From assembly GCA_018398815.1 (NCBI GenBank), contig CM031626.1:38326088-38390087 (forward strand): a DNA stretch of 64,000 nucleotides. Direction: 5' to 3'. The position numbers were made by a program, and so were the translations under genes. Shown here piece after piece: positions 1,803 to 18,299 of this stretch. The notes beneath the pieces were generated by a model. It was given only the letters and a program-made list of their open reading frames with translations. It made no database searches and was not told where the DNA came from. Each line of letters begins with the position of its first letter. Within the stretch, counting starts at the first letter, position 1. The stretch is from Conus ventricosus (lineage: Eukaryota; Mollusca; Gastropoda; Neogastropoda; Conidae).

Positions 1803-1805
1803 AAC

Positions 1806-2805
1806 CTAGGGCTTGGCCGACACATCATGCCTGGTTCGGTTTTGCTGTAGCTGCATCGTTGGGGGAGCTGGGTGGGCGCCTTCGTTTGGGGGATCGGGGT
1901 GACGCGTGACGGTGGCTCGAGGACGGCCCACTAGTGGTCGCACTGTTGCCACGGACAGGTGACCTGCTTCCGAGGTTAAGATTTCCGACTGACCCCCCTC
2001 TTGGATGACTGGAGGCTCGTTGTGGCGGCGAGTGCTGTCAGCGCTGCCGTTGCCGGAACGTTGCTGCAGAGGGCCCGCGACCACCAGCCTGTTGCCCTTG
2101 TAATAAGCATGTAGTCCTTTCTCGCGATGCTTTCTGATCTGCTCCGACTGTCTCGTTGTCAAGTCGCCTGCAACCTGAATTCCCTTTTGTTTTAGCACCA
2201 TACGTCCTTCGTCAAGACGTCCATCTTGTCTTGCCAACGGAAGAATTTGACAATCATTGGGCGGGGTTTGGGGTTAGGAGTACGGTTGGCAGCCATTGAC
2301 GCAAAGTTAGGTTTTTGACCCACTCTGTGGGCGCGCACAATGTCATCCACCGACCATGTTTTTTCCTGGCACAGTATCCTTCAGAGATTCTACCACTTTG
2401 CTGGCACATGACTCAAAAGTTTCACCAGGAGTTTCAACGAAGCCGAAAAAAACGAAGGTTTGTCCCGGCGCGAAAAGGCTTCTAACTTATCCAGTTCTTC
2501 ATCGTACCGTTTCCTCAGGTCCGTCAGATCTTCTTGCAGATCTTCGACAGACTCCGCCGAATCCTCCTGTTTCTCAGCCAGCGGGTCACAGGTTTTCTCC
2601 AGACTGGTGGTGCGGTCCTTCAAGTCTGCAATGTCACAGGCAATGGCTTGCACCGACGACAACACAGAGTTCATGTCAGCACGCAGAGCGCCAAGCTGTG
2701 ACGACAATTTTTCGTTGATAGCCTGTGTCTGTTGGTCGAGGATACGCTGGATGTCGGTCAGAGTGAGGGGCGAGGGTGATGTATCCTCCCGATCAGATAC
2801 ACAGG
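1806..2805 (-). pseudogene. LINE A ORF1, C-terminal part (coiled coil plus L1-ORF1-like RNA-binding domain)
   Basis: This is the nucleic-acid chaperone ORF1 of the same LINE. From 2805 downward it encodes a heptad-like coiled coil (residues such as AIACDIADLKDRTTSLEK and further DLQEDLTDLRKRYDEELDKLE), then DIVRAHRVG and RPMIVKFFRW. That order is what L1-type ORF1 proteins show at the junction into their RRM and C-terminal domain. The end (1806-2237) has RKHREKGLHAYYKGNRLVV, like the L1 C-terminal domain, then a proline- and arginine-rich tail. A frameshift lies near 2240-2400. Its N-terminus is cut off at 2805 by the Polinton-like insertion; the missing first codons are at 17236-17280. That the coding frame continues across the empty site is read from the sequence; the domain names are inferred from family pattern. 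Confidence 0.75.
2801..2805. repeat. Target-site duplication, left copy (ACAGG)
   Basis: ACAGG directly abuts the left TIR and recurs at 17236-17240 directly outside the right TIR. Removing the element and one ACAGG gives a continuous LINE ORF1 reading frame. Polintons typically duplicate 6 bp, so a sixth base may have been lost or the TIR edge may be off by one. Confidence 0.65.
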
Positions 2806-2981
2806 AGAGAACAGTATTATGCCGCTTTTGGCTCACCCACTCTCAACCGCCTTGGCCGGTCTCGGGCGGGCGACTCCAAAAGCGGCATATATCCGTTCTC
2901 TACTAAGCATGACTTTAATAACCAAAAAAATAACGACCCTACAAACATTACATACTGTGTAGGGTTATCTGTTTTCAATAC
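2806..2981 (+). repeat. Left terminal inverted repeat
   Basis: Matches the reverse complement of about 17065-17235 nearly base for base, including the run CTAAGCATGACTTTAATAAC and the following AACGACCCTACAAAC. The outer 96 bases (2806-2901) form an imperfect palindrome: arm 2806-2831 (AGAGAACAGTATTATGCCGC...) pairs with 2876-2901 (ending ATCCGTTCTCT). The centre is GC-rich and itself contains a CGCCTTGGCCGG palindromic core. The repeat stops about 24 bases before the ATPase stop codon at 3005-3007. Confidence 0.85.
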
Positions 2982-3004
2982 TAATTTACAAAACTTTTCA
3001 GATT

Positions 3005-3546
3005 TTAGTTTTTGTTTAATCTTATGTTTTTCTTGATCTTCTCAATAACATCATTTTCGCGCAAACATTCATCAAATGAGTCTCTGTCTTTCATGTGAAA
3101 TAAAACTACAGTCTTTAACTTTCTCTAAAGTCTTTTTAAAACCGAGTTATATTTTTGACATAAAATCCACACACTTATCCCAGCATGTCTTCCACTGAAA
3201 GCTAGTTTTGACAAAGCGTTTCTTTTTTTAATTAGTCTCTTTCTGCCGAACAGTCATCTATAATAATAGCGTCTGCGTTCCCTCAAACATTTTATTAAAG
3301 TGTTCTAAACACTCACTCAGTTTATTGCTAGGATCAACTAAATATAGTCATCATCTGTCCATATAAACCTTCTATTATGATATGCTTTGTTCCATTTAAG
3401 TGTTGGACAGAAAATCACAATGTGATCAAATTATAGCGATAAACTGTTTGTAATAGGTCTAGGACAAATATTGTTTTTCCACAACCAGTTTGCCCACAAA
3501 TTAATGAGCAATGAGGAGTTTTTGTCATAAAGTTTAACTGCTCCAT
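3005..3546 (-). pseudogene. Genome-packaging ATPase (A32/FtsK-HerA type), frameshifted
   Basis: This is the P-loop ATPase that in Polintons, adenovirus-like and NCLDV relatives pumps the genome into capsids. Starting at the ATG at 3544-3546, the minus strand reaches a Walker A motif GQTGCGKT (3472-3495) within the first ~25 residues. A Walker B-type segment ending IIDDCSAE lies at about 3241-3270, followed by ALSKLAFSGRH and a QKY sensor-type motif. The stop is at 3005-3007, just inside the left TIR. Expected length is about 180-230 residues. At least three indels break the frame (after the Walker A region, before Walker B and after it). The middle and C-terminal parts align closely with the plus-strand ORF at 59345-59751, which supports both calls. 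Confidence 0.8.
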
Positions 3547-3599
3547 GGTTTTATAACAGGATTTAATCTAATCCAGTTATTATATTTATCATACTTTCT

Positions 3600-4417
3600 G
3601 TCAAAACCTGTTCAGTATAATAAAACCCTACAGACCTAAAGGGTGAAAGATTTAATCCAATTCAGTTCTGTAAGTTTTGTTTCTATTTAAGTCAACATTG
3701 ATTTTGTTGCTTGTTGTTATAACCTTAATATCCTCACCATTGTGAAGAACGACGTGGTAACGTTAAGACGTTTAACGTCTAAGTTTTGCCAGCTAATATT
3801 AATTCCTTTTATAAGGACGTCACTAACGCCACAACCCCATCCCTCTCCACATCTTAAAGACAAAAATTTTCAAATATCATTGTGAACGTGTCTCCTAATT
3901 CCTGTGCGGAAAGAAACTGTAATTTTGTAGAAGTTTCCCTTTAAAACCGTTTCTTTCTGTGGAGGATGTACTGTTTTTTCCCATACGGCGTTATTTCAAT
4001 CTCTTTCCGACTATTGTCGCCGGCATAAGCTTACATGTAAAGGGCCAGAGTTGAATGCTTTTCTGAAACTTTTTTGTCGGCTTAAAAAATGTAAATGGGG
4101 CTTATAAATTCAAATTTTATTTCCCATTCTAAATATGGTTCTAAGTGCCATTTGAGGTCAGGTTTTCGAACTATTTTTATTCTATGGCCAACATTATTTG
4201 CTTTTTGATTGCGCAGTTGTTCTAGTTTAGGAAACTTTTTGCTGTCCCCAAAACCTCTTACGTTTATAATCACCATTTTTAGTGTACTCAAAACCATACA
4301 AAGCGCTATTTCACCGTTCTGTTAAAAGTCCTCAACGTCTGCAAGGTTTTTTTAATTCTAAAGTTATACACCTCAAGGTGCTAATGCAACTCCTGATTCA
4401 TCTGGCCCACGCGACAT
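3600..4417 (-). pseudogene. Conserved Polinton-like protein X (function unknown), frameshifted
   Basis: Begins at the ATG at 4415-4417 (MSRGPDESG). It continues in broken frames through YGFEYTKNGDYKR, FPKLEQLRNQKANN (4082-4297) and then KEIEITPYGKKQYILHRKK, fading out near 3600. The same string of segments, better preserved, is at 59894-60735, so the gene is about 270-280 residues long in its family. It lies 52 bp or more upstream of, and co-directional with, the packaging ATPase in both copies, which suggests a linked structural or assembly role. No enzymatic motif is visible. A minor capsid role is possible but is a guess from position only. Confidence 0.6.
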
Positions 4418-4512
4418 TTTTAGTACGGGCTTATTATTTTATTTCCAAAACAATGTTGCAGGTTATACATTTCACGATTTTCCCTGTTTTGTCTGAAATT
4501 TTTTTATTTTAA

Positions 4513-5130
4513 AATTGATCCGACCCTTCCACAAACTAATCTTTTAAACTGAAATTAGGGAATTGTTAATTTCATAATCGCAATAGCAGCTTTCCCTGAT
4601 GGAAGAGCTCTTAAAAACAGTTGAGGGCCTTCCTCATATAAGTTTCATCAGTGCTCAGCTCATCCAAATGAACATGAGTAATGAATGTAATGCAAGATCG
4701 AGCGGATTTTTCCCTCATAAGTTAGTTTTGTTTGGTGTAACTTCAAACTATGAACGGCTTGATTGGCAGTTGTAAAACTAACATTTTAGCTAGCTCTCCA
4801 TCAAAATGGTAACCTACTTCTTCTTCTTCAGGTTTGAAGGTCAACATTGTTTTCAGATTCGCATTGTTAAGTTTGAGAGTAATGTCAAAGTTACTCATTG
4901 CTTTTTAGTGAGCAAAACCCGTAATAACCATCAGGTATTGTTAACTGGCTAACTTTGGCCCCTGTTTTGTTAACTTTTAGAATCGTATTATTCTCCCTGG
5001 ATTCACTTATATTAAACCATACAACTTTGTAAAATATTTCATGAAGCGCAACCATTCTGCTTCCGCAATTGTTATTAATAGCATGTTCTAAAAACGAAGG
5101 GCTGTCTTGAGTTGTTATTGTTACAAACAT
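4513..5130 (-). pseudogene. Candidate minor capsid/penton-like protein, frameshifted
   Basis: The start at 5130 (MFVTITTQDSP) leads into VALHEIFYKVVWFNISESR and LTIPDGYYGF. After a frameshift near 4895 come further segments: FDITLKLNNANLKTMLTF, VGYHFDGELAKML, HVHLDELSTDE and RALPSGKAAIAI. The beta-strand-rich, short-domain character and the position among virion genes fit the small single-jelly-roll protein that forms pentons in Polintons. I cannot confirm the fold by eye. The start codon is only 18 bp from the divergent ATG at 5149, so the two genes probably share a promoter. No copy is present in the second cluster at 59-62 kb. Confidence 0.45.
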
Positions 5131-5148
5131 TTTTTAAAACAAATTAAA

Positions 5149-6252
5149 ATGAGTGCATTCAAATTACTGATGCAAATATTTGCTGGGGCCGCACTAAAAA
5201 CCTTAAAAATATAGCAACGTTTCTCTTGACATTTCTGTGACTCAGTCTGACCCCTTTCAAGTAAAGGTGAGTACTCCTTGGCCAATATCTTTAACCCCCC
5301 TATTAAAAGACTACATCCCGAAAGTGTGGTTTAGTCATCCGATGCAGTTTTATCAGAACCATTTAAAACTTTGCTGTGTTTTGGCATCAACTGGGTGTGG
5401 GAGTGTCGTTTTGTCTTTAAAATTTAAATCATCCTGACCTTTGTGAGGTCAGTGTATAGATTTCATTTTTATTACACCTTCAGACGTATTTTAAAATGAA
5501 CTGCAAGCGCCATTCCCAAATGACAAACGTTTAATCCATTCAGCAACCGATAGACATGAAGGCTTTGAAGGATCTGTAACGAATTCAATATTAACATCAA
5601 GCAGACTTTAGACAAAAGTTGGATCTTAATCATGGTCTAGGCACCCTTATTTTGGGGCGGCACAGAAAGTATAACTATGATGGAAATCTCCTTACACATC
5701 TTTCTCTTCAGGCAACACTGTTCACCTCGGGTCCATAGAGCAAGAGCATAAAACAGCATGGACAACATTTATCTTAGACTCTTCTAGGGCGTAACTAAAG
5801 CAGGAATAGAACGAATAAACGACTCTTTCGTACTTACGTTTGGTGTTTGCTAGGTTCGCAAGCACAAACGAGATCGAGCATAACTGATCCTTCTACTGGT
5901 TTTGATGCACAAAAACAATACTTAGCAAATTTAGAGGACGCCATTAATTCTACAGTTGATTTACCTTCAAGTATTAAAAGGTACCAAAATGTTTTACAAT
6001 ACGCAAGATCGAAAGTAGACTTTGCTGTTGGCACTGGTTTATACATGCTGCCTTCTGACCTCAGACTCCAGATAGGCACAATAATAAACTACAACAATGA
6101 AATCCTTGTGGCAGGCATATGAACAGAAGGTTGGGAAAAACGAAATAAATTCTGAGCCAGTAATATTGCAAGTAGTAAAACAAACACCCAAGAATAAGTC
6201 ATCCAATCCCTGTGGCCCAAAGCCGAAGGCCGTTGAGAAGTCAAAAAAATAA
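5149..6252 (+). pseudogene. Conserved structural-type protein of the Polinton-like element (unknown function), frameshifted
   Basis: The ATG at 5149 opens a short hydrophobic N-terminus (LLMQIFAGAALKTLK). The next pieces are QSDPFQVKVSTPWPIS, LLKDYIPKVWFSHPMQF and CGSVVLSLKF (5237-5437). A badly broken middle covers 5440-5790. It recovers as ERINDSFVLTFG and then the open stretch 5847-6122 with DAQKQYLANLEDAINS, LPSSIKRYQNVLQYARSK and GTGLYMLPSDLR. A last frameshift leads to a basic, lysine/proline-rich tail (PKPKAVEKSKK) and a stop at 6250-6252. Expected length is about 350 residues. It has no motif I can tie to an activity. The tail and neighbours suggest a virion or DNA-associated protein. 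It converges with the minus-strand gene ending at 6305. Confidence 0.5.
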
Positions 6253-6304
6253 TGACCATGAATATGAAAAGACAGCACTTGTTCTTGGATTTAACTGGCT
6301 AGGA

Positions 6305-7469
6305 TTACTTGGTCTTTATTTTACTAAAAATTAACCCGACTATTAAGAGAACTAATGTCCATAAGTGCTCGGCATAAAGCCAACTACTTTGCCTGCAGTA
6401 GACAAAAGCCAGCTAACGACACCCCATAATATACCTGGTAAAGCATTCACGGCTTTACCGGCTAATTTTTTTAAATAAACCCGCAAGATGATCAAGCTGT
6501 TTTTTTACCCATGATTTATCAGGTGGAGGGGGATGGCGGTGGAGGCACTGACCCAGCACCCCCGCCGCCTGTAATTACCCCATCCCAGTGTACTTATTGC
6601 AAACCCTAAGGCCGTTATAACGCTTACTAATGTGACTCCTTGTCTCTAAACAGTGTTCTATTTTTCTGCTAGTGTTGTGTCTTCATATAAAATTCTTTGG
6701 ATGTTTCTCTTATTCTGCTCACTTGAGTTCGTAATTGTTCTCGGTTAGTAGCAACACTTCTAGTCTTGCTGATCTCTCTTGTTCAAGATCTTTTGTCTTT
6801 GGGGTTATTCTTTCTTTAACACCGGGCCCCCTAAGTTGGCGTCATCCCCTCAACGAGTTTTTCTTTTTCTCTTTTTATATGCTCATTAGTTCACCTAGTT
6901 TTGCTAAATTGTTTGTTTAATTCGCCTCTGATGCTTCTCAAAGCATGATCAGGGCGTTATTTCTGCATGGGTAGCGGGGGGTCGTGTATAGTTTTATTGC
7001 TGTTTCTTCTGAAAAATGGTTTCTGCTTGCATTACTTTGTCTGCTGTTGACTTAATCTTGAAGTTCATGTTTTGTATTTGGCTATCTGTTGGGAGTCTTG
7101 TTGTATGTTTTGAAGTTTAGCAACTGCCTCAGCTCTTAATTTCGGTCTAACAATGCCAAGGCGATTTTGATCAGCCACTCTAAGTCTTTGTCTAATTGTA
7201 TTCATGCCTACAACTTTGATGGGTCTCGTTTATCTGAAAGCGAACAAGTTGTCTTGATCGTTTTTCACAAACAAATGGCCTTTTTTATTCTACATCAAAT
7301 CAATAGAAAATCGGGAGGTTTCTGGCCAGACTCTTGTAAAATGAGTCAACCTTACTTAATGTTAATTCATGCAACAGTGAGGTGTTGAGCGATGCTGTTG
7401 TGTCATTTCACTCATGTCGTCTCCAGGATCAAAAACATCATAATCTTCTTCACCTTCAATGCCTGCCAT
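6305..7469 (-). pseudogene. Coiled-coil protein with two hydrophobic segments, possible membrane-active virion protein
   Basis: Starts at 7469 with an acidic leader (MAGIEGEEDYDVFDPGDD). It continues, across many frameshifts, into helical charged stretches (IRQRLRVADQNRLGIVRPK, AEAVAKLQNIQQDSQQIAK, GELNKQFSKT), then a hydrophobic segment GVTLVSVITALGFAIST and a glycine/proline-rich linker at about 6517-6590. A second block follows: WVKKQLDHLAGLFKKI, then NALPGILWGVVSWLLSTAGK, then a membrane span LVLLIVGLIFSKIK before the stop at 6305-6307. An amphipathic helix next to a membrane span resembles membrane-disrupting capsid proteins, but that role is inference. The start is 39 bp from the divergent capsid-like ATG at 7509. 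Confidence 0.5.
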
Positions 7470-7508
7470 GTTTCTTTAATAATAACTTTTTATTTTGTTT
7501 TATAAAAA

Positions 7509-8785
7509 ATGTCACAAACATATGGCTCGATTCTTGACCCGCATAGAAGACTGAAAGAACCCTTTGGCGTGAAGGGAAATAAGCGGAATATGACTGTTCC
7601 AAATAATCCATCTACTATTGATGCGGATCAAATTCTTACTGTCAAATTTCCAGGCCTAGGAGCGGATGAAGTGATTGTGCCAGGCTCTGCGCGTCTTACT
7701 TTCAAAATAGAACTCGAATCAGCAACAGACCCAAACAGGACAGTTGTCCAGAATTTGGGACGGGCAATCGTTAAGAAAATTTCTATAAAACTTGAGGGGC
7801 AAGAAATATTTTCTTTACACAATGCAGACATATTTTTAACTTATTCTGATCTATGGCTAACCGGGAACGAAAGGGCTGATCTTGCGTTTCAAGGAATCGA
7901 AAAATGAAGAAGCACTAAAACATAGAATAGGCGCTGAAGATGCTAAAGACGGCAAAGGTTTGTAGCCGTAAGTTATGCGTATGGAAATCGCTTTTCTATT
8001 CCCTTAGATTTTGAGTTGTTAAAAGCGCATGCCCATACTTTCAAGGAGCATTAAAGACAGATTGTCATATGAACTAACTTTTAATGAATACAAACGGGTT
8101 ATCAAATCATCAGACACCGAAGCAAAGTACAGCATTTCTGACATCTCGTTAGAGTTTGACGTTGTTAGCAACCCTAATTTAGCAAGGCTGATTGAGCAAC
8201 AATATCACTCAAAATTAGCAATATATTACGAAAGAGTGATTCATCATACAACATATCCAGAAGCAGGGCAGACACTATATGGAATTTTAGTTTTAGTGCT
8301 GCGGCAAGATCGCTTAAAGGTATTTTATTGCTGTGTGAAGATGAAGAACCATTCAAAAGAGGAAGTGAAAAGTTTATTATCCTAAAATAACGAAAGTACA
8401 ATGTTCGATTGAGGGTAGTCCTAACCAAATCTACGCTGCGGGCTTAGACCTTATCAGCATTTTGACGAAATAAGAAAAACTGTTTGGAGGCGGGAGGTGT
8501 AGAAATCCAACAGTTGACTTGTGTCTAAAGATTTACATCTTCACAATGTTAGGCTTGATGATTATTTAACAACGAAATACGGTTTATGGATTGACCTAAG
8601 GTCAACAGAGGATAATCAGTTGATGGAAGCGGAGAGAACGGTTAAAGACGTAATAAACATTCAAATTGATAAAGAAGAAGACTGGCGATAAACCCCTTAA
8701 TGCACATTTGTTTTTAATATATGATGCGCAGCTCAATATTCAAGATAAGATTAAAAGATATACAATACTAAATTATTTTTTTTTA
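7509..8785 (+). pseudogene. Major-capsid-like protein of the Polinton-like element, frameshifted
   Basis: This is the candidate main shell protein (double jelly roll type in Polintons). The first ~130 residues are intact (7509-7907): MSQTYGSILDPHRRLKEP, then MTVPNNPSTIDADQ, then VQNLGRAIVKKISIKLEG and DIFLTYSDLWLTG. Later pieces are in shifted frames: RFSIPLDFELL, LSYELTFNEYKRVI (8029-8270), YSISDISLEFDVV, LARLIEQQY, KDLHLHNVRLDDYLTTKYG and finally LNAHLFLIYDAQLNI near 8695-8740. Total expected length is about 420 residues. At least five indels disrupt it. Identification rests on this recurrent segment order beside ATPase, PolB and integrase, not on a structure; it is the gene in the element with the best capsid credentials. 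Confidence 0.65.
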
Positions 8786-8798
8786 ATTTTTAAAAAGC

Positions 8799-9426
8799 AT
8801 GTCTGTTCAGCATTATCCGAGAGTACCTACAGCACCGGAGTCGCCAAACGAAGGGATAGTAGAAAACCCTAGCATAAAAACTTTCAGATTAACAAACATT
8901 ACACAAATGCAGCAAGTACTAGAGCAGGACCTTTCAAAATACAGCAAAGCCAAACGAAGGTATTCTGCTGCCTTTAATGCTGTTACATATGTTAATACTG
9001 GAGCATCGACTATAGTGCTCTATCAGCAGGAACGAGTGTTGGTCTCTTAGCAACGGGCATAGGCGCACCGCAGCTTTACCTTAGGCGGTTTGTCTTTAGC
9101 TCTTGGCCTATGTTCATTAGGTGTAGGTGCTGCTTAGCAAAAAATAAAAACTAAACTCCAAAAGCACACAGCTATGGTTCAACTAATAACAGCTAAACTT
9201 AGTTCCTTTAAGCTGATAATAAATAAAGCGCTAGCTGACTCAAACATCACGGATGAAGAATTTAATCGTTTACAGGCCGATTTTGATGACTACAAAAGAC
9301 AAAGTTTGATCTTCAAAGAAAGGCGAGGACAAGTTTTTCTCAACAGCCAGACCCCGAGCAGATAAAAAGGAATGCTTAAAAAAAGTAAACGAGACATTAA
9401 ACTCTGTTCTAAACAGCTCACATTAA
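8799..9426 (+). pseudogene. Small conserved hydrophobic-core protein, frameshifted
   Basis: The ATG at 8799 follows the capsid-like gene by about 15 bp. The N-terminus is proline-rich (HYPRVPTAPESP), then a helix QDLSKYSKAKRRYSAAFNAV. A glycine/alanine-rich hydrophobic core follows across frameshifts (SALSAGTSVGLLATGIGAP, GGLSLALGLCSLGVGAA). The C-terminal helical part is MVQLITAKLSSFKLIINKAL, DEEFNRLQADFDDYKRQ and a basic end at about 9426. The same architecture is at 60766-61316. The core could be one or two membrane-inserting helices. Function is unknown. The stretch 9427-9543 that follows is noncoding or a lost C-terminus. Confidence 0.55.
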
Positions 9427-9543
9427 CAACCCCAAAGGGCGTTTATACTTTAGTTTATGAGTCCAAGCACAAAAAGACCGTTGATATTGATTAATTATTT
9501 TTTTGATTTAAATAAATATTTTGAGTTAGAAAAGAAACTCAAC

Positions 9544-12500
9544 ATGGATAAATTATATGAAGGACCAGACGAATTTTTTGAAGCAATGCAAGAAAATTTT
9601 ATCAAGAGCACTAAATGATATGATCTAGAAGTCATTAATCCAGCAAACGTACAGGCAAGTGTTGCTCATGCTATTTCTCAAGTTCCAGGTAAACTAACAA
9701 TAGACCGCCAGTTAAAGTAATGTTAGCTGTTTTAATCGACTATATAACAATAAATGAAGAAAACCTAGAAGTCTGGGTCTCGACTAAACAGCAGACTATT
9801 CTTTCCTCTAATGACTTAACACCCGGTTGGGGCAGACGAACTGCTTACACAGTTTGATGTGGCCGCTGAAGAAGCCAAAATGAGAGGCTCCGGTTGGTCA
9901 GAGGGCGAAGTCTTAGAGATTAGATTAAACAGTCTAAGTATGCGCCGATTGTTGGCAAGTCTTACATTCCACTGCCTCCAGCATTAGTCGCAAAAAAAGC
10001 AGTTCTAAACATAAAGAATTATTCAGACAACAATGTTTTATGTGGTGTATTCTCGCAAGGCTGCATTATATCCGCAAAAACGCAGAGAGAGTGTCAACTA
10101 TCACCCTTACATCAATGATCTTAACTTTAGTGGGGTGTCCTTTCCTGTTAGCGTGGATCCATTGATCAGTTTGAAGAACAAAACAAACCATAACTGTTAA
10201 TGTATACACATGGGATGAGGAAACAAATCTACTACCCATTAAAGTGTCCAAGAACAGCCCAACAATAGGTGATCCAGATAAAAATCATGTTGACTTACTA
10301 CTGATGTTTTCACCAGCGGGGGGTACCGCATTACACATTGATACGAACAATGAGTAGATTATTGCGGCATTACTTCAAAGCATTACCATAAACAAGAATT
10401 CTGCAGAAATGTTTAACAAGAATTCCATCTGCTCAAGCCGCAAGCGAACATAAGAAACATTGTATCGGCCCAGTTGACTGTAATACAGAACTAATTACGC
10501 CCCCAGAAGGCAGTAAAGTTAGTTTTAAGAACTGGAAACGGCTGCAAAATTCTCCATACGTAGTTTTACGCAGACTTCGAATCACTCATTGTTCCTTATG
10601 AAGGGCCAGCGCCACAAAAACTTCGAAAAACAGTCTTAATGAGTAATCACCAGATTTGTTCATTTGCCTTCATTATTGTCAGGTCGGATGGTGCTCATTC
10701 AGCACCAGATTATATAGAGGACCAGATGCGGCTAGAAGATTTTTACAGCGCATGCAGCAAGTGCGTAATGACTGTTCTAATAATCTGAATTTATCTGAAA
10801 TCATGATGACGCCTGAAGACCAAGAACAGTATGACTTAGCCACACATTGTTGGATTTGTGGTTTAGAACTCAGTGAAGAAGCTAATCCAACAGTAAGAGA
10901 CCATGATCACATTAGTGGAAGGTTCAGAGGAGCAGCACATAGTAAATGCAATCTTCAACTAAAGTTTGAACAAAGACATGGAAGCTGCCTGTATTCTTTC
11001 ATAACTTGCGAGGTTACGACTCTCATCTTATATTGCAAGCAGTAACCAACGCCTTCAGGGTGTCATGCATTGCACAGTCATCGGAAAAGTACATGTGTTT
11101 CACTTTAAATAACATGTCTTTTTATGACTCTATGCAACACATGATGGGTTCATTAGAGTCACTGGCTATGTCCTTAAAGTCCTGCCCAATACGGAAGAAT
11201 ATCTTGACCCAACTCTCGTTAGAAGGGCGTTTACCCTTATGAGTACATGAACAGTTGGGGAAGGTTTGACGAAGACACACTTCCTCCTAAAGGCGCGTTC
11301 TTTTCTAGTCTTAGAGGAAAGGACATCAGTGATTCTGATTACCAGCATGCTCAAGATGCGTGGCAGAAGTTAGATTGTAAAACGTGGGAGACTATCATGA
11401 CTCCTACTTAATGGCTGATACATGTTTGTTGGCGGACGTCTTTGAAAACTATAGAAAGACCTGTATGAAACATTATAGCCTGGATCCTGCGCATTACATT
11501 TCTGCGCCTGGGATGAGTTGGGATGCTTTCTTAAAGTTTACTGGAGTACAGATTGATTTATTGTCTGACCTACCAATGATTCAGATGATTGAAAACGGAT
11601 TGCGCGGAAGGAATTAGTATGGCGTCGCATCATTACTGTAAAGCAAACAACAAATACTTGGACGACTATGATCCGAGTAAAAGGTCAACTATCTCATGTA
11701 TTTAGATGCAAACAATCTGTATGGATGGGCTATGGCGCAATCACTTCCATTACGTAACTTTTAAATGTACACTGGTGGTATTAAAAACATTCAAGAATTT
11801 GTAGAACATCTGCATACTCTTACAGCTGATCGTAAAAGAGGTCTTATTCTAGAAGTTGACTTAGAATATCCTCATGAACTCCATGACCTGCATAATGACT
11901 ATCCATTAGCAGCAGAAAGTCTAAAGACGAATCCAAGAGAGCCGCCTAAACTTGTGCCTAATCTTCGAGGCAAAAAAAATTATGTCTGTCATAACAGACT
12001 TCTACAATTTTATTTAAGACATGTTTTGAAGTTGACAGCTGTTCATCGTATAATTGCTTTTGATCAAGAACAGTTCATGAAACCATTCATCATGAAGAAC
12101 ACTGATCTCAGAACTAAATCCACAGATGCTTCAGAAAAAGACTTTTTCAAGTTAATGAACAACAGCTGTTTTGGAAAGACTATGGAGAATCCGCACAAGC
12201 GCAAAGATGTTAGATTGGTCACCAGAGAGAACGAAGCAATTAAGCTGACTTCTAAACCTATTATCAGGACTTTAAAAGATTTCATGATCAGCTTTTTGGC
12301 ATAATGATGAAAAAAAAGAAAGTCAAATTGGACAAACCTGTTTTTATTGGGTTTACTGTTTTAGAATTATCAAAGCTTTTAATGTTTAGAATTTCTTTAT
12401 GGACTACTTTAAGCCCTCGTATCCAGAGTCCAGAGTACTTTACACAGATACAGATAGTTTTGTTATAGATATCCCTACTGAAGACATCTATAAGACATGG

Positions 12501-12899
12501 AATCGAAGTGGCTAAAGGACATGCGGGATGGTACGACACGTCCGATTACCCTAAAGATTCGCCTTTGCATTCAATTATAATAAGAAGGTTTTAGGAAAGA
12601 TGAAGGATGAATTATCTGGAAAGGTGATCAAGGAGTATGTTGGGGTTAAGGTCGAAATGTACAGTATTTCGAGCCAGGAGAAAACCATTAAGAAAGCAAA
12701 AGGAATATCTCGCAGCGTTGTGCAGTCGAGCATATCGCATGACAACTACAAAGAAGCATTGTTTGACAATAAGACTTTTCATCATGACAACGTAAAACTG
12801 CGATCTAATCTACATGAGATCAACACAATGGTTGTAACAAAGAAGTCATTAGATAGAACAAACACAAAACGGGTGTTTGTTAATCCAGAGTTTTCATAG
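9544..12899 (+). pseudogene. polB: Protein-primed family B DNA polymerase with endonuclease VII-like insert, frameshifted
   Basis: This is the replicative DNA polymerase of the element (DNA_pol_B_2 type), with 3'-5' exonuclease and polymerase modules. The ATG at 9544 opens MDKLYEGPDEFFEAM. An exonuclease-type motif YADFES is at 10567-10584. A zinc/HNH-like module at 10845-10955 reads CWICG, then RDHDHISGRFRGAAHSKCN, the pattern of phage T4 recombination endonuclease VII. Further motifs: DYHDSYLMADTCLLADVFEN (11384-11440), LDANNLYGWAM as the palm Asp motif (11702-11734), KLMNNSCFGKTMEN as motif B (about 12146-12190) and YTDTDSF as the catalytic motif C (12441-12461). The C-terminus at 12600-12899 is open. 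Expected length is about 1100 residues. About a dozen indels or stops break it. The final 118 bp overlap the opposite-strand ORF that starts at 13228. Confidence 0.8.
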
Positions 12900-13228
12900 C
12901 AATAGGGCACTGGAGGACCGCATAAACAGGGGTTTTTATATTTTTCATCAGCTTTTATTATAAGATCAATCATAGCTTCATCCAATTCATTTAAATCTTT
13001 TCTCATGTTTGCTTGATGCGTTCGAATTTTTTTTATTATTTCAAGATATTCTTTTTCCCAATTTGGGGGTTTGAGTTGTAGGTGATCTGGATGATTTAGC
13101 ATGCATTGATTAATCTTCAAAAATGTTCCTCTAATAGCATTACACGCATCAAATGATTCCCGTATCATTTCCAAGGTCTCTTCCTTTACCATTCTTGTTT
13201 CGTTTGCACTTCCTTTCTGAGCTTCCAT
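12899..13228 (-). CDS. Small helical ORF convergent with PolB, unknown function
   Basis: The ATG at 13226-13228 begins MEAQKGSANETRMVKEE, followed by mixed-charge helix-like sequence (IRESFDACNAIRGTFLKIN, WEKEYLEIIKKIRTHQ, RKDLNELDEAMIDLIIKAD) and a Cys-containing end (NPCLCGPPVPYC). The frame stays open beyond 12899 to 12782, antisense to the end of PolB. I limit the call to the non-overlapping part, because the overlapping part may simply be a shadow. It sits 30 bp downstream of the integrase stop on the same strand, so co-transcription with integrase is likely. I recognise no domain. Confidence 0.5.
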
Positions 13229-13257
13229 TTTAAACTCAATATATTTACGTAAATTAA

Positions 13258-14212
13258 CTAAGCAACTGGAACTGTGTCTGGTGGGATTATCTGCAGTTCT
13301 TCTTTTACAAAAGATCTTTGAGGAGCTGGTTGTTTTGTTGTGTCAGTTTCTCGTAAATAAATACACGGGCGGATTCATTTTTACAATTCTTTTATTTCAT
13401 ATGGATCAACACTCCAAACTGGATCTGTTGCCCTGATGCGAGTGTCCCCTTCTGCTTCCCCCGGTAAATAAAGGTACCTTACTTTTAAACCAAACGGTAA
13501 TAGTTTGCCGGATGAAGACTCTCCTTCAACAACATTTATTGTTTTTCTTTTGATTGCTTGTACTGGTTTTTAGCCCTTTAAATTCTTCATTATTCATTGC
13601 GCGCAAAACTGAGGGCAGTCTTCTAACCCATTCTGTGTTGCGAGAATTGTCAATAAGCTCTCTGTGATACTGGTAGGAAAAAAGTCTTTCAGCTAACTGT
13701 TTGTTAAAGTTTTCAACTAAAGCCTGTGATCTGTGAACTCCTGGAATGCCTCTTCTAATGGTAACTCTATGTTTTAACAATAATTGATTCACTTGGCCTT
13801 TAAATTCTTTTCCATCATCGACTTGAATCATGCGAGGATAAGTTAAGGGGCCTCGTTGGTATATCAGTTGTATGGCAACAGCAACAGCAGAAGCACTCTT
13901 TTGTGTTAATGGTTCAGCATCTTTGTATCTTGAAGCTATGTCAATGACTGTGAGTGCGTACTTAAATCTTTTTCGTTTTAATCGTATCAGAGGGTAAATA
14001 TAGAAGATCCATTTGATGGGTGTCGTTTGGAGTTGTATTGACAAAGTGTGGTCTCTGTATTCGTCTAGGTGCAGGTAAATAAATTTGCCAAATCGCTTGT
14101 TTAGATAACCATTCCTTTGCTGTTTGTTCACTGACTCCCGCTGCTTGGCTTAGCTTTTTATTGCTGTGATTCCCTTCCAATATCCTTTTGGTGAATAATA
14201 GATTTTGTTCAT
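13258..14212 (-). pseudogene. Polinton-type rve integrase, frameshifted
   Basis: This retroviral-like DDE integrase would insert the element and make the short target duplication. The best ATG is at 14210-14212 (MNKIYYSPKGYW); an upstream in-frame open stretch to 14222 begins only with TTG. The N-terminal helix-turn-helix-like part has LSQAAGVSEQTAKEWL. The catalytic core shows the first Asp in HQMDLLYLP, then ALTVIDIASRYKDAEPL, the second Asp in IQVDDGKEFKG, and the Glu in ALVENFNKQL. After a frameshift near 13540 the C-terminal domain continues (GEAEGDTRIRATDPVWSVD) to the stop at 13258-13260. Two or three indels break it. The C-terminal part is closely matched at 61376-61585. Confidence 0.8.
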
Positions 14213-14218
14213 TTTTAT

Positions 14219-14624
14219 TCAACCAATATTATGTGCAATAAAATACACAATGGTCATACCAACGACAATAAACACGATTTCTTGCATCTTTTGTTTTTCT
14301 GATGGTTGATAAAAGTCACTAAATTTTGGCGGGGGCAATGTTTCGATTGGTTTGCCTGTTACAAGATAATATTCTTTTATTGCCTGGTCAACATCTTTAA
14401 ATGTGTAAGCTGCATGCCCCTGTTTTTTCAGTTTGTTATTAATAAATCTAACTGCTCAATTCTCTGCTTTTCATAGTGATCTTGTGCAGCTGCTAGTTGC
14501 TCCATAGCTTTGTTATGTCTTTTTCTCTCGCCGTCGTCCCGTAGCTTACTAAAAGCGTATTACTTCCGCTAAAAGCAAGCGCATTCACCACAGCGCCACC
14601 TATCATCATTACGAGTGAAGCCAT
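14219..14624 (-). pseudogene. Small protein with N- and C-terminal membrane segments, frameshifted
   Basis: The ATG at about 14622-14624 gives a hydrophobic start MASLVMMIGGAVVNALAFSG. A helical charged middle follows in another frame (HNKAMEQLAAAQDHYEKQR), then KKQGHAAYTFKDVDQAIKEY. The C-terminal membrane span is EIVFIVVGMTIVYFIAH, and the stop at 14219-14221 overlaps the integrase leader. Expected length is about 135 residues. Two frameshifts are present. The C-terminal part reappears, degraded, at about 62340-62490 beside the second integrase, so the integrase/membrane-protein pairing is conserved. Function is unknown; a virion membrane protein is possible. Confidence 0.55.
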
Positions 14625-14646
14625 TTTTTATAAATGTATTTTTTAT

Positions 14647-14877
14647 TTACATATTTATACTGTCTGGAATTATTCCTTGCTTAACTAGAAAATCTTTCGT
14701 GGCAAACGAAGCTGCAATGATAGCAATTAGCTTTGCTGAATCCTCAAAGTCTAGTTTGCCAAGATCTGCTGGTTTAATTCTTAACAAGCTTTTACCAAGC
14801 ATTGTGTATCCTACACTTAGACCTCCAATAACAGCAGAATGGTATACAAGGTTGGTAATAGTTTTTTCGGCGCTCAT
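14647..14877 (-). CDS. 76-residue membrane protein, intact
   Basis: This is one of the few intact frames in the element. ATG at 14875-14877, 76 codons. It begins MSAEKTITNLVYHSAVIGG and has a hydrophobic first half (SAVIGGLSVGYTMLGKSLL). A second hydrophobic helix is LIAIIAASFATKDFLV, after the charged stretch DLGKLDFEDSAK. It resembles short two-helix membrane proteins found next to integrase in related elements. It is separated by 32 bp from the divergent gene at 14910, so the two starts probably share a promoter. Activity unknown. Confidence 0.6.
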   Translation of the reverse strand: MSAEKTITNLVYHSAVIGGLSVGYTMLGKSLLRIKPADLGKLDFEDSAKLIAIIAASFATKDFLVKQGIIPDSINM

Positions 14878-14909
14878 TTTAAAAATAAAATAATTATAAT
14901 TAATAAAAA

Positions 14910-15817
14910 CATGAACACCGATGATCTATTAAACCTTCCTGAACTTATGATTACAAATGACCAGGTTGATGAGCAAGCTATTATGCCAAAAAAAAAAGAC
15001 TGTATTCTTTGGCAGCATGTGGAAAAAACAAAACAGTTCCTCGGAAATGAATTCAGCATAGAACAGATTCAACAGATGTCGCCGCCAAGACATTATAAAG
15101 TATCATAACAGGTATGAAGCGCAACTTGGATCAAGAATGGTAAAAAGTGTAGGGCAAACGGTTCTTAGTTTGTACACTAAACTAGTCAGTAGATTTGCTC
15201 CCATTGATTCTGAACAAGATCTTACGTATGATTTAACGCAAGATCCAGTTTTAACAAAGTCATTAGAGTCTCTAAGCTGTGATTTATATTACAGATTTGG
15301 AACATTGTTATCGCCGTTAATCATGGGATTAATTACTTTTAATCATATAGATTTATTTTCCCTTCAAAATGACCGAGCCAGAAAATCATCAGAATCAGAA
15401 AACATTGAATCCAGTAAAGAAAGTGACCAGCGAGAAGCATCTCATCCTGGGCGTGTTAAAGCAGGAAAAAAATTAGCAGAGTGGAACAGACAAAAAAAAT
15501 TAATGTTACAGAATATAACTCATCATGAAAACATAACACCGCCAACGCCAGAACAAGTTAATTCAATGCCAGCTATAAAAACTTCATGCGATTCAAGGGC
15601 CCCAAAGTCTTCATGGAATATTGAACTTAAAACTGTTGCCATTTTTGGCGCCATTGCTGCTGCTGGGGGCAGTTATTACGGTTATAAAATATATACACAA
15701 TGGCAACAAAAACAAAAGAAGTTAAAACAACCTGAACCACTAAATACAGAAAAAGACAACAGCACGCCAAAACCGCCAATAACAAAACATCATTTTGATC
15801 CATTTATAATGCAATAA
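14910..15817 (+). pseudogene. Conserved protein with basic linker and C-terminal membrane anchor, one frameshift
   Basis: The ATG at 14910 starts MNTDDLLNLPELMITNDQ. It continues through ILWQHVEKTKQFLGNEFS until an early stop at 15106. A frameshift there leads to YEAQLGSRMV and the long open frame 15137-15817. That frame carries QTVLSLYTKLVSRFAPIDSE, a hydrophobic stretch LYYRFGTLLSPLIMGLITF, and a basic motif PGRVKAGKKLAEWNRQKK that could bind nucleic acid. A membrane span TVAIFGAIAAAGGSYYGYK and a lysine/proline-rich tail end the protein. Total is about 300 residues. The combination suggests a protein linking DNA or core to a membrane, but that is inference. A single missing or extra base would explain the break. 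Confidence 0.55.
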
Positions 15818-15848
15818 TATTTTAAATTTTTTTTAATAAAAATAGATC

Positions 15849-16097
15849 ATGGCGGATTATTATTTGTTTAAAATGATGAAGTCAATAAATAAAGACATGG
15901 AGTCTATAAAAGACATTTCCATAGACCAGAATTGTAATTGCTTAGGATGTAAGAACTTCATTAAGATTTATGCTAACCGATCTTGCGCAGAGGACGTTGA
16001 GCAAGACATCCTCAACGATGACGCGTTTTTTGAGGCGTGTGTGTACTATATTAGACATCTACTATTTAAGATAAAACATAGATTGTATTTTTTTTGA
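15849..16097 (+). CDS. Short ORF with a Cys-X-Cys-X2-Cys cluster, unknown
   Basis: ATG at 15849, 82 codons, starting 32 bp after the preceding stop in a compact AT-rich gap. The sequence has MADYYLFKMMKSINKDMES, then a cysteine cluster in QNCNCLGCKNFIKIYANR and an acidic region AEDVEQDILNDDAFFEA. It could be a small metal-binding protein. It is the last gene before the noncoding right end of the element. I have no family for it and coding status rests on compact spacing and intact frame. Confidence 0.4.
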   Translation: MADYYLFKMMKSINKDMESIKDISIDQNCNCLGCKNFIKIYANRSCAEDVEQDILNDDAFFEACVYYIRHLLFKIKHRLYFF

Positions 16098-16100
16098 TAA

Positions 16101-16360
16101 TTATAAGATAACTTGAATAAGAACTTGGCTGTACTTAGAGGATGACTTAGTTATGATCTTAGGTTTACTTGGGTAAGAACTTGAGGATGACTTGAGGACG
16201 ACTTCAGTTAAGAACTTAAAAGTGACTTGAGGATAACTTGAGGACGACTTGAGGATGACTTGTGAATGACTTGAGGATGACTTGTGAATGACTTGAGGAC
16301 AACTTGAGTAAGAACTTAGAAGTGACTTGGAGTGACTTGAGTTAAGAACTTGTGGATAAC
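16101..16360. repeat. Degenerate short tandem repeat (GACTTGAGGAT-like)
   Basis: A run of imperfect copies of ACTTGAGGATGACTTG and ACTTGAGTAAGAACTT-like units of about 15-30 bp lies between the last gene of the element and the G-rich block. It has no coding appearance; open frames across it are low complexity. Confidence 0.75.
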
Positions 16361-16365
16361 TTGAG

Positions 16366-16600
16366 TGTGCATGCGTGGGGTGGGGTGGGGGTCGTGCGTG
16401 CGTGGGGTGGGGGTGGGGGGACGTGCATGCGTGGGGTAGGACAAAACAAACAACAAACAAACAACAAACAAACACACAATAGACAGTCCTGGGGTGGGGG
16501 TGGGGGACGTGCGTGCGTGGGGTGGGGGTGGGGGTGTGCATGCGTGGGGTAGGACAAAACACACAACACCAACAAACAAACAAAAAGCGGAACTACTAGG
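16366..16600. repeat. Two-copy G-rich repeat (~110 bp unit)
   Basis: The block GTGCGTGCGTGGGGTGGGGG, followed by GCATGCGTGGGGTAGGACAA and an AAACAAAC-rich tail, appears at about 16391-16480 and again at about 16509-16590. The G4-T-G5 tracts could form G-quadruplex structures. The proline/histidine-rich ORFs drawn on the opposite strand are by-products. Confidence 0.7.
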
Positions 16601-16777
16601 ACCATTCTTGCTTTGGGGACAAAAACAGGTTGTGTCCCGCGCGCAACCTCAATCAACTAGGTCAAGTGAATGTTGAAAAAAGAAACAATTAAAAAATGTT
16701 TAAAAAAAAAAAAAAATTGTTTTCATTGAGAATCCAAAGTAAAACAGGAAAAAAAAAACAAAAAAAAAAAAAAAAAA

Positions 16778-16815
16778 ACTAGGTCAAGTGTTCACAGATG
16801 AACACTTGCCCTAGT
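16778..16815. other. Near-perfect 17-bp inverted repeat (hairpin) inside the right end of the element
   Basis: The arm 16778-16794 (ACTAGGTCAAGTGTTCA) pairs with 16799-16815 with one mismatch around a four-base loop CAGA. It follows a poly-A tract. The string CTAGGTCAAGTG also occurs once more at about 16657-16668. It could be a terminator-like or protein-binding structure; nothing similar was seen inside the left end. Confidence 0.6.
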
Positions 16816-16819
16816 TTGC

Positions 16820-17064
16820 CGCTAAGCTTTGCAGGTGCTGCCGCGCTTTGCAGGTTGGGGAATGACTGAGCAAGATCCTTTCAACCACTTATAAAAATCT
16901 CGCTATTCAGAACTGCACTATGAGGTATTTAACTCTCGCTTTACAAATCCAACGATGCATGAGTGGAGACCGCTAGATTGCTCTGAATGCTTCTATTGAA
17001 ATCTCTGGGGAGTGCTGCGCTTCACTGCATGCCTTTAAAAAGAACAGCCTGCAGTGTGTGTGTG
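16820..17064. other. Noncoding right-end region of the Polinton-like element
   Basis: No ORF or motif is supported. It contains a short direct repeat of GCTTTGCAGGT at about 16825 and 16844 and leads into the right TIR. Confidence 0.4.
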
Positions 17065-17235
17065 GATTGAAACGGATAACCTGCACAGTATGTATGTTTG
17101 TAGGGTCGTTATTTTTTTGGTTATTAAAGTCATGCTTAGTAGAGAACGGTATTATGCGCTTTTGGAGTCGCCCGCCGAGACCGGCCAAGGCCGGTTGAGA
17201 GTGGGTGAGCCAAAAGCGGCATAATACCGTTCTCT
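17065..17235 (-). repeat. Right terminal inverted repeat
   Basis: Inverted copy of 2806-2981. Its fold-back arms are at 17141-17166 (AGAGAACGGTATTATGCGC...) and 17210-17235 (ending ATAATACCGTTCTCT). The arms are closer to perfect here than at the left end. Differences from the left copy are single-base changes and small gaps. Confidence 0.85.
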
Positions 17236-17240
17236 ACAGG
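17236..17240. repeat. Target-site duplication, right copy (ACAGG)
   Basis: Right-hand copy of the pentanucleotide at 2801-2805. On the minus strand it encodes the last codons of the ORF1 N-terminal fragment. Confidence 0.65.
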
Positions 17241-17480
17241 TAACAGCAACTTCTTCAGATTCAGAGGACGGGGACGCCATGGTAGTGGTAGCTGTGTGCC
17301 ACCGCCGACACGTGAGCGCGTGCAACTCAGGTAAACACCTTTGCCTCACGCCACCACAGCAGCCAGCAATGGAGAAAAATAAAATACAGGATAAATGAGA
17401 AAAAAACTTGAAGTCACTCAGAGACAAAATTTGTACATTCGATTCACCGAAGACTCACGAAGATGATGGTAATAATTGTA
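17236..17480 (-). pseudogene. LINE A ORF1 N-terminus and 5' leader, separated from the rest by the insertion
   Basis: On the minus strand an ATG at 17280 starts MASPSSESEEVAVTC, an acidic, serine-rich leader peptide, and runs straight into the right terminal repeat at 17235. The frame at that point (phase, and the shared pentanucleotide) matches the start of the coding fragment that leaves the left terminal repeat at 2805. The natural reading is that one ORF1 was split by the 14.4-kb element. The bases from 17281 to about 17480 would be the LINE 5' untranslated leader; nothing else is recognised there. Confidence 0.7.
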
Positions 17481-17582
17481 TATTTTTAATTTGCGCTTTG
17501 CCGAAAATAACTGGGAATTTTAACTAATAATGCCGCTGCTCCTCAAAGAATGGTGTTGCCAGTTTCATGAGCTTAAACTCAC

Positions 17583-17584
<2 letters not shown>

Positions 17585-17646
<62 letters not shown>

Positions 17647-17680
17647 AGACAAGACAAGACAAGACAAGACAAGACAAAAT
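17585..17680. repeat. (GA)n then (AAGAC)n microsatellites
   Basis: About 50 bp of GA dinucleotides is followed by six or so copies of AAGAC up to 17680. On the minus strand the pentamer reads TTGTC and lies at the 3' end of the retroposon-like tail at 17681-17820. Confidence 0.85.
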
Positions 17681-17818
17681 TCTTTATTTACGAGGATAAT
17701 AGATAAGCACTGATGTGCTTTTTTACATCCAGTCCTCGCCCTGAGTAGGGTCAACAATAAAATAAAAGGTAACAAAGGAAGCATGCAAAAGTGACTAGAA
17801 CTACAATACAATACAGGA

Positions 17819-17820
<2 letters not shown>
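17681..17820 (-). mobile_element. 3' tail of a retroposon ending in (TTGTC)n
   Basis: A non-repetitive 140-bp piece starts on the plus strand with TTCTTTATTTACGAGGATAA and includes TGCTTTTTTACATCCAGTCC. Its minus-strand end carries an AATAAAG-like signal and then runs into the pentamer array at 17641-17680. Simple-repeat 3' tails of this kind are typical of non-LTR retrotransposons that do not use poly-A. The body is missing, so the family cannot be named. Confidence 0.4.
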
Positions 17821-17853
<33 letters not shown>

Positions 17854-17929
17854 GAGAGAGAGAGAGAGAGAGAGAGACAGACGACAGAGACAGAGACGCA
17901 GGAGCGAAGGGAGTGCGGGGTAAGTCTGC

Positions 17930-17966
<37 letters not shown>

Positions 17967-18065
17967 GGTGGGGGAGAAAAAGGCGAGAGTGGGTGCGATA
18001 AGAGGCACGTTTAGAACAATTGACAATCAAACATTCCAAGGAGATATAGACAATCGAATTTGATG

Positions 18066-18103
<38 letters not shown>

Positions 18104-18260
18104 TAGAAATAAAGCCAATGGAGGTGGGAAATGCAAATGAAGCCCATCCCCAGGGGGGAGGGGATGTCAAGGGATAATAAATAAGTCATTCACAGAACCT
18201 TGAGAAGAGAGAGAGAGAAGAGAGAGGGAAGGAGAGAGGAGAGAGGGGAGAGAGAGAGAG
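17821..18260. repeat. GA-rich microsatellite cluster with poly-G run
   Basis: GA arrays at about 17823-17880, 17930-17966 and 18205-18260, and an uninterrupted G run at about 18070-18101. The long serine/leucine-rich minus-strand frame across this block is an artefact of CT repeats. Confidence 0.85.
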
Positions 18261-18299
18261 TCACAAAAGAATACAAGCTTGACAGAATGACAAAGGGCA

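What the first reader, a model, noticed from the sequence alone, without database searches (positions are those of the whole stretch)
2806..17235. A Polinton-like virus-derived element split a LINE ORF1 and its exact ends can be read
Seen directly: inverted repeats of ~175 bp, flanking ACAGG pentamers, and on the two outer sides the N-terminal and C-terminal parts of one minus-strand ORF1 in matching frame. Known: ATPase, PolB and rve integrase with TIRs define Polintons/Mavericks. Inference: the accessory genes form a coherent virion gene set from one lineage that I do not recognise as a named vertebrate-type adintovirus. This gives a boundary-resolved reference copy and a relative age (younger than LINE A).
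Basis: partly seen in the sequence, partly recalled or inferred. Interest (0 to 1): 0.9.

Follow-up and report, generated by a model that had tools for sequence, protein, structure and literature searches.

The report
Capsid-gene provirus with palindromic genome ends
A 14.4-kb virus-like mobile element sits at a base-exact insertion site inside a repeated host gene, it is one of many copies in this large genome, and its ends are long palindromes whose two halves change together, a sign that the ends may fold back on themselves.

Summary
TIRs of 174 and 170 nt (2806-2979, 17066-17235), flanked by ACAGG, bound a 14,430-bp element that splits a repeated minus-strand host ORF (LINE ORF1 by eye); uninterrupted copies in the same genome carry one 5-bp copy at that point. 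The assembly (3.52 Gb) holds many further copies of the TIR. Of 17 two-ended insertions read, 12 have exact 5-bp duplications and no clear 6-bp one was seen. Genes: double-jelly-roll major capsid protein (modelled on a relative 69% identical to the first piece), A32-type ATPase and PolB pieces with weak scores, and a retroviral-type integrase. It is an endogenous Polinton/Maverick-type virus; five scans of IMG/VR found no relative. Frameshifts in the window are weak evidence of decay: a second assembled copy of the same insertion differs mainly by indels. The new point: the outermost ~97 nt in each of 73 TIR ends aligned is a palindrome, and 68 of 73 have matching arms at three variable positions (44 of 49 distinct rows; shuffled mean 13.2, maximum 25). 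I infer a fold-back step in end replication or repair. Passages read do not describe this, but key Polinton papers are not held.

The parts
931..2800 (-). host repeat (LINE by eye) downstream of the insertion: rest of ORF1 (2390-2800) and further coding fragments by eye (931-1452)
   Evidence: 2390-2800 matches many genomic places, 80-99% identity over 40 of 57 candidates scored; ORF lists; no Pfam hit for 931-1452
2801..2805 (.). target-site duplication ACAGG, left copy
2806..2979 (+). left terminal inverted repeat (174 nt)
2806..2901 (+). terminal palindrome of the left TIR, partly mismatched
   Evidence: ssDNA fold z -6.07; aligned with 45 other ends; limits
3125..3567 (-). packaging ATPase pieces (Walker A piece 3415-3567; second piece 3125-3253)
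   Evidence: Pox_A32 E 1.2e-3 and 1.8e-3, both below Pfam's cut-off, at profile positions 10-44 and 112-141; on the first piece AAA_23 scores better (6.7e-4, also below cut-off)
4743..5133 (-). unassigned gene, two pieces
   Evidence: ORFs; no useful Pfam or PHROG hit
5799..6252 (+). unassigned gene, two pieces
   Evidence: ORFs; no Pfam or PHROG hit for 5799-6122
7512..8771 (+). major capsid protein in pieces of different frames (7512-7904, 8023-8385, 8518-8691); 3' limit by eye
   Evidence: first piece 69% identical to P0136 (426 aa), 120 relatives at E 1e-3; second and third pieces align further along P0136, the last piece tried (8657-8872) did not align sensibly; model of P0136 is a double-jelly-roll capsid protein
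8787..9365 (+). two small unassigned genes
   Evidence: ORFs; no useful Pfam or PHROG hit
9820..12899 (+). family B DNA polymerase in pieces, with an endonuclease-VII-type domain at 10647-11045; limits by eye
   Evidence: Endonuclease_7 E 1.9e-5, above cut-off; DNA_pol_B_2 E 6.8e-4, below cut-off; DNA_pol_B E 0.1 on 12390-12515; four other pieces gave no family
12782..13342 (-). unassigned open frame
13381..14228 (-). retroviral-type (rve) integrase in pieces
   Evidence: rve E 2.9e-8; 275 relatives, best 67% identical over 91% of the piece; model of relative P0001 matches retroviral intasome integrases
14219..14925 (-). small unassigned genes
   Evidence: ORFs
14821..15817 (+). conserved gene of unknown function, in two frames
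   Evidence: 14 relatives, best 79% over 44%, aligned
16157..16365 (+). 11-bp minisatellite inside the element
17066..17235 (-). right terminal inverted repeat (170 nt)
17141..17235 (-). terminal palindrome of the right TIR
   Evidence: arms 17139-17173 / 17203-17237, 80% complementary; ssDNA fold z -9.53; limits
17236..17240 (.). target-site duplication ACAGG, right copy
17241..17520 (-). host repeat upstream of the insertion (start of ORF1 included)
   Evidence: in uninterrupted copies such as C1, C16 and C35 this match ends 5 bp from the left-flank match

Best explanation
This is an endogenous Polinton/Maverick-type DNA virus, one of many copies in its host genome. Shown: base-exact insertion with a 5-bp duplication into a repeated host ORF; a gene set with double-jelly-roll capsid protein and rve integrase, and weaker matches for ATPase and PolB; TIRs whose outermost ~97 nt form a palindrome with co-varying arms. 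Inferred: a linear genome is copied by the protein-primed polymerase and packaged in an icosahedral particle; the integrase joins its AG...CT ends to staggered cuts 5 bp apart; during end replication the single-stranded terminus folds back on itself and part of one arm is templated by the other, which keeps the arms complementary while their letters drift. The confidence given is for the identity; for the fold-back step I hold about 0.4.
For: Ends and empty site. Family: (40 of 1069 and 40 of 1831 candidates scored). Duplications in 17 two-ended insertions: 12 exact 5 bp (10 of 13; C12116 and C35), C10 5 bp by eye, C29b with one mismatch, C7 ambiguous by eye (5 or 6), C4a and C8 none. Capsid: pLDDT 84.6, pTM 0.87; PBCV-1 and iridovirus capsid chains, E 7.8e-17, prob 1.00, TM about 0.6, 9-10% identity. 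Integrase. ATPase and PolB. Palindrome: fold z -6 to -13 in 5 of 5 ends tested; in 46 ends, 33 distinct, 27 cells changed on both sides against shuffled mean 9.9 and covariation score 0.062 against 0.019, both 0 of 500 shuffles, and at most 2 such cells with the partner slid by 1-3; 68 of 73 ends concordant at positions 8, 9 and 12, 44 of 49 distinct rows against shuffled mean 13.2, maximum 25 of 10,000; six concordant three-letter states, so at least five coupled changes if there was no recombination.
Against: Nothing shows particles, replication or a protein on the DNA ends. PolB and ATPase rest on short pieces mostly below Pfam's cut-offs; no protease or penton gene was recognised. For the fold-back step: one measure, further pair types, was not raised (5 against 5.7; 487 of 500 shuffles as high) and pairs with a change on both sides only weakly (3 against 2.0; 18 of 500). 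Near the loop (positions 23 and 25) the outer arm differs alone in 24 of 73 ends and is matched in one (L118), so complementarity is not kept along the whole arm. The loop has one orientation in 73 of 73 ends, so there is no parvovirus-like flip-flop. Ends were drawn by similarity to two query TIRs and copies are related, so shuffles overstate significance. 5 of 73 ends are discordant, the window's left end among them.
Confidence: 0.93

Rival explanations
1. The terminal palindrome is a dyad-symmetric protein-binding site (integrase or terminal protein) conserved by selection for binding, not for base pairing or copying.
For: Integrases act on paired ends as multimers (established knowledge); 15 of 26 arm pairs never vary.
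Against: A sequence-specific site should conserve letters; here letters change (three states at position 8) while complementarity is kept in 68 of 73 ends.
Confidence: 0.25
2. The coupled arm changes reflect a few old subfamilies, each with one double change, then inheritance; no ongoing fold-back process.
For: Copies are related; 19 and 35 of 73 ends share two states; the shuffle controls ignore relatedness.
Against: All four combinations of G/T at position 8 and T/A at position 12 occur with matched arms, plus two more states, which needs repeated coupled changes or recombination in both arms. No tree was made.
Confidence: 0.3
3. The window copy is a dead fossil, as its broken frames suggest.
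For: Capsid, PolB and integrase are each split over several frames; the left palindrome is mismatched; the piece 13720-15777 differs from C1783 by 87 mismatches.
Against: Over the pieces compared with C1783, leaving out two left-right TIR cross-matches, there are 257 gap openings against 122 mismatches in 8563 columns, and 20 against none over 9232-11224: the pattern of long-read assembly errors. The two host flanks together show 15 gap columns against 5 mismatches.
Confidence: 0.35
4. The element belongs to a commensal or contaminant, not to the organism whose genome this is.
For: The closest relatives come from short contigs of public assemblies.
Against: It interrupts a repeat with many copies in the same chromosomes, and TIR and capsid matches lie on chromosome-scale contigs.
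Confidence: 0.02

Closest known systems
Polintons / Mavericks of animals (class Polintoviricetes)
   Same: rve integrase, double-jelly-roll capsid protein, TIRs beginning AG and ending CT, copies of 14-18 kb; PolB and A32/FtsK-type ATPase by weaker matches
   Different: 5-bp duplications; vertebrate Mavericks are reported with 6-bp ones and (AG)3 or (AGT)2 end motifs (PMC8097293, passages read), though 5-6 bp is given for the group or its kin (PMC8547959, PMC12220804, passages read). Palindromic TIR tips are not mentioned in the passages read.
Adintoviruses (now Eupolintoviridae)
   Same: PolB and integrase in an integrated element
   Different: the chromodomain named in their definition was not found by Pfam; hexon BLAST and PolB OTU domain not tested (definition from PMC11071296, passages read)
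Meldviruses with giant-virus- or poxvirus-like virion proteins (e.g. Meld23486)
   Same: integrase and PolB beside a capsid protein that matches giant-virus capsids best in fold searches
   Different: no sequence comparison was possible; the Hydra Polinton capsid also finds PBCV-1 VP54 (PMC4028283, passage read), so this fold match is not unusual
Bidnaviruses
   Same: Polinton-type PolB and inverted terminal repeats
   Different: their inverted terminal repeats are reported not to form hairpins (PMC4061559, passages read); parvovirus-type capsid
Parvovirus terminal hairpins
   Same: self-complementary linear genome ends (recalled knowledge)
   Different: loop orientation fixed in 73 of 73 ends, no flip-flop; no Rep-type gene recognised
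Kalilo linear plasmid of Neurospora mitochondria
   Same: a PolB-bearing linear element with a hairpin-forming derivative, by the title of a reference listed in PMC11071308
   Different: only the title was seen; not an integrating animal element

Membership tests
Polinton/Maverick | retroviral-type integrase | tested here: met
[quoted passage not shown]
   pieces match PolB below Pfam cut-off; terminal-protein and OTU domains not tested
Polinton/Maverick | packaging ATPase | tested here: inconclusive
   two pieces match Pox_A32 below cut-off
Polinton/Maverick | double-jelly-roll major capsid protein | tested here: met
   fold made on relative P0136, not on the broken window gene
Polinton/Maverick | minor capsid protein and Ulp1-type protease | tested here: inconclusive
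   no piece scanned was recognised as either; broken frames were not read through, so a miss means little
Polinton/Maverick | TIRs and 5-6 bp target-site duplication | tested here: met
Adintovirus (Eupolintoviridae) | integrase with C-terminal chromodomain | tested here: inconclusive
   Pfam on intact relative P0001 finds rve only up to E 1; C-terminal strands in the model were not compared on their own
Adintovirus (Eupolintoviridae) | hexon recognisable by BLASTP | not testable with these tools
   no adintovirus hexon sequence was at hand; fold matches to named adintovirus, adomavirus and MELD entries are at 9-13% identity
Parvovirus-like hairpin transfer | both orientations of the terminal loop | tested here: not met
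   73 of 73 ends in one orientation

The most novel reading that the evidence does not exclude
A lineage of integrating capsid-bearing PolB viruses carries self-complementary genome ends that are kept matched by fold-back copying of the terminal ~20 nt, an end-maintenance step not known to me for Polintons, lying between protein priming and parvovirus-type hairpins.
Probability: 0.35. Interest if true: 0.75.

Novelty: new variant of a known kind. Interest (0 to 1): 0.55.

Why it matters
It gives a boundary-resolved Polinton-type element with its empty site and exact 5-bp duplications in a series of insertions in one genome. The co-varying terminal palindromes are a new handle on how such viruses keep their linear ends, and can be tested by sequence alone in other lineages. 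It also warns that frame breaks in such assemblies may be sequencing errors.

Tried and rejected
Relatives in IMG/VR: integrase piece and integrase alignment, alignment of the gene at 15062-15817, capsid alignment, and a TIR pattern gave none; phage and plasmid records none for the integrase piece. PHROGs (10 proteins): four families for P0001, three of them transposases, and one weak family of unknown function for 14647-14925. Capsid profile against PDB sequences: one match at E 1.3, taken as chance. Parvovirus-like hairpin transfer was set back because no flip-flop was seen. A 6-bp duplication was looked for and not clearly seen; the C7 pair could be read as 5 or 6. The idea that the giant-virus-like capsid match is unusual was dropped: the Hydra Polinton capsid does the same (PMC4028283). 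A first script for arm concordance used a pairing shifted by one base and was replaced. Copy number: 41,246 first-look candidates for the capsid protein is a loose count with no control; only 98 were scored, and whether they lie in elements with this TIR was not checked. Tree-based tests were not made. The host species was not identified.
Full report
Boundaries. ACAGG flanks them at 2801-2805 and 17236-17240. The host sequence on both sides is one repeat: left flank (411 nt) and right flank (280 nt) were searched in the window's own assembly (G000, 3.52 Gb, 12,740 contigs; window = C32:38326088-38390087). Left-flank matches of 80-99% occur at 39 further places (40 of 57 candidates scored), and in many of them, such as C1, C16 and C35, the right-flank match ends exactly 5 bp away (40 of 43 scored). 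In 10 copies fetched, 8 passed the script, each with a single 5-mer at the join. The joined host flanks read one ORF through the site; of the 10 copies 5 read through it in the same frame. That the repeat is a LINE and the frame its ORF1 is judged by eye; neighbouring ORFs gave no Pfam family.

Second copy of the same insertion. The unplaced contig C1783 holds an element in the same site with the same duplication; its flanks match the window's at 99.6% and 99.4% outside gaps. Over the pieces compared, leaving out two left-right TIR cross-matches, 8563 columns hold 122 mismatches and 257 gap openings; the piece at 9232-11224 has 0 and 20. The piece at 13720-15777 is an exception, with 87 mismatches. 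Of 196 indels in three pieces, 88 lie next to a run of three or more equal bases. I read the indel excess as assembly error; the broken frames are therefore weak evidence of decay.

Family in the genome. TIR searches scored 40 of 1069 and 40 of 1831 candidates. Six places match the second query exactly, the query itself and the other end of the same C12 copy among them, which points to recent activity. Two-ended insertions were read by their flanks: of 13 (C1783 left out as a duplicate), 10 have exact 5-bp duplications, C10 has one by eye after an indel, C4a and C8 have none; lengths 14.1-17.7 kb. One search adds C12116 and C35 (exact 5 bp; the C35 ends lie 37 kb apart) and C29b (one mismatch in five); C7 is ambiguous by eye (5 or 6 bp). 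Of 20 ends tested for a partner 13.5-20 kb away, 8 had one. Near the ends, 74 flanks show A at 0.50 nine bases out, T at 0.51 eight bases out and T at 0.08 five bases out; no fixed target motif was seen.

Genes. The first unbroken capsid piece (7512-7904) has 120 relatives at E 1e-3, the best full-length ones 69% identical. Relative P0136 is listed with a contig of 13,209 nt, the same length as the longest contig listed for the best integrase relative P0001 and for P0123; this suggests one genome but was not checked. The AlphaFold2 model of P0136 on 35 sequences (pLDDT 84.6, pTM 0.87) matches PBCV-1 and iridovirus capsid chains (E 7.8e-17, TM about 0.6) and giant-virus, adomavirus, adintovirus and MELD virus proteins. 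The integrase piece has 275 relatives; the model of P0001 (pLDDT 77.7, pTM 0.57) matches retroviral intasome integrases (E 8.9e-13). PolB and ATPase are recognised from pieces with weak Pfam scores; an endonuclease-VII-type domain lies inside the PolB region. In the host genome, 98 capsid loci were scored out of 41,246 first-look candidates; 87 have no internal stop and 11 have one. They are the best-scoring loci, so the share is biased upward; the candidate number has no control; and it was not checked whether they lie in elements with this TIR.

Terminal palindrome. One search already shows the right TIR folding on itself (17139-17173 / 17203-17237). Aligned TIR ends (46, 33 distinct) share arms at alignment columns 1-26 and 74-99. 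Single-strand DNA folds have z-scores of -6.1 and -9.5 in the window and -10.6 to -13.1 in three other ends. With the named structure 97.3% of cells pair; 27 cells carry changes on both sides (shuffled mean 9.9) and the covariation score is 0.062 (0.019), both 0 of 500 shuffles; pairs with a change on both sides are 3 (2.0; 18 of 500), further pair types 5 (5.7; 487 of 500). With 27 more ends, 68 of 73 are concordant at positions 8, 9 and 12; among 49 distinct rows 44 are concordant, shuffled mean 13.2, maximum 25 in 10,000. Six concordant states occur (GGT 19, TGA 35, AGA 6, TGT 4, GGA 2, TAA 2). Over the 26 arm pairs, 38 ends have no mismatch, 29 one, 4 two and 2 four. Against a full-length constraint: positions 23 and 25 vary on the outer arm alone in 24 ends and are matched in one (L118). 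The loop has one orientation in 73 of 73 ends. A model that fits: in strand-displacement replication the free terminal strand folds back, is trimmed and re-extended on the inner arm, so that only the outermost ~20 nt are kept matched. This is inference; subfamily history and protein binding remain rivals, and no tree was made.

Literature. Search listings and passages only were read. Vertebrate Mavericks: 6-bp duplications and (AG)3 or (AGT)2 ends (PMC8097293). 5-6 bp for Mavericks and kin (PMC8547959, PMC12220804). Hydra Polinton capsid and VP54 (PMC4028283). Meldviruses and the adintovirus definition (PMC11071296). Bidnavirus repeats do not form hairpins (PMC4061559). Renaming to Eupolintoviridae (PMC12451622). 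The word 'hairpin' is absent from the held texts of PMC8097293, PMC10328495, PMC11071296, PMC12220804, PMC4642659 and PMC8547959; PMC6431247 uses it for Helitrons in the passages shown; PMC11071308 only in the title of a cited work on a hairpin-forming kalilo plasmid derivative, a possible precedent I could not read. The original Polinton paper, the adintovirus paper, the nematode Polinton paper and the 2024 review are not held. Searches for hairpin or palindromic Polinton ends; no listed title or abstract start describes them, which is not proof of absence.

Verdict. The finding is confirmed and its interpretation supported. As a Polinton it is a new member of a known kind; the co-varying terminal palindrome makes it, as far as I could check, a new variant.

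Noticed in passing
window 16157-16365 and 16378-16568: 11-bp minisatellite and a pair of G-rich repeats inside the element near its right end
   Followed up: no
G000:C35:11385354-11422498: Two matching TIR ends with a shared 5-bp duplication lie 37 kb apart, more than twice the usual element length; possibly nested insertions
   Followed up: no
C4a (L052 and L072): The two ends carry different palindrome states and no shared duplication, as if two elements had recombined
   Followed up: partly
window 10647-11045: Endonuclease-VII-type domain lies within the PolB region
   Followed up: no
P0051-P0120: Many of these related integrases are listed with contigs of hundreds of kilobases to megabases, so kin are probably integrated in other large genomes
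   Followed up: no
P0169, P0177: Capsid relatives are named in Candidatus Thiodiazotropha MAGs; I suspect host DNA binned with a symbiont
   Followed up: no
G000: 41,246 first-look candidates for the capsid protein hint at a very large number of capsid-gene copies in one genome; uncontrolled
   Followed up: partly
window 17571-18277: Long GA-rich simple repeats next to the insertion
   Followed up: no
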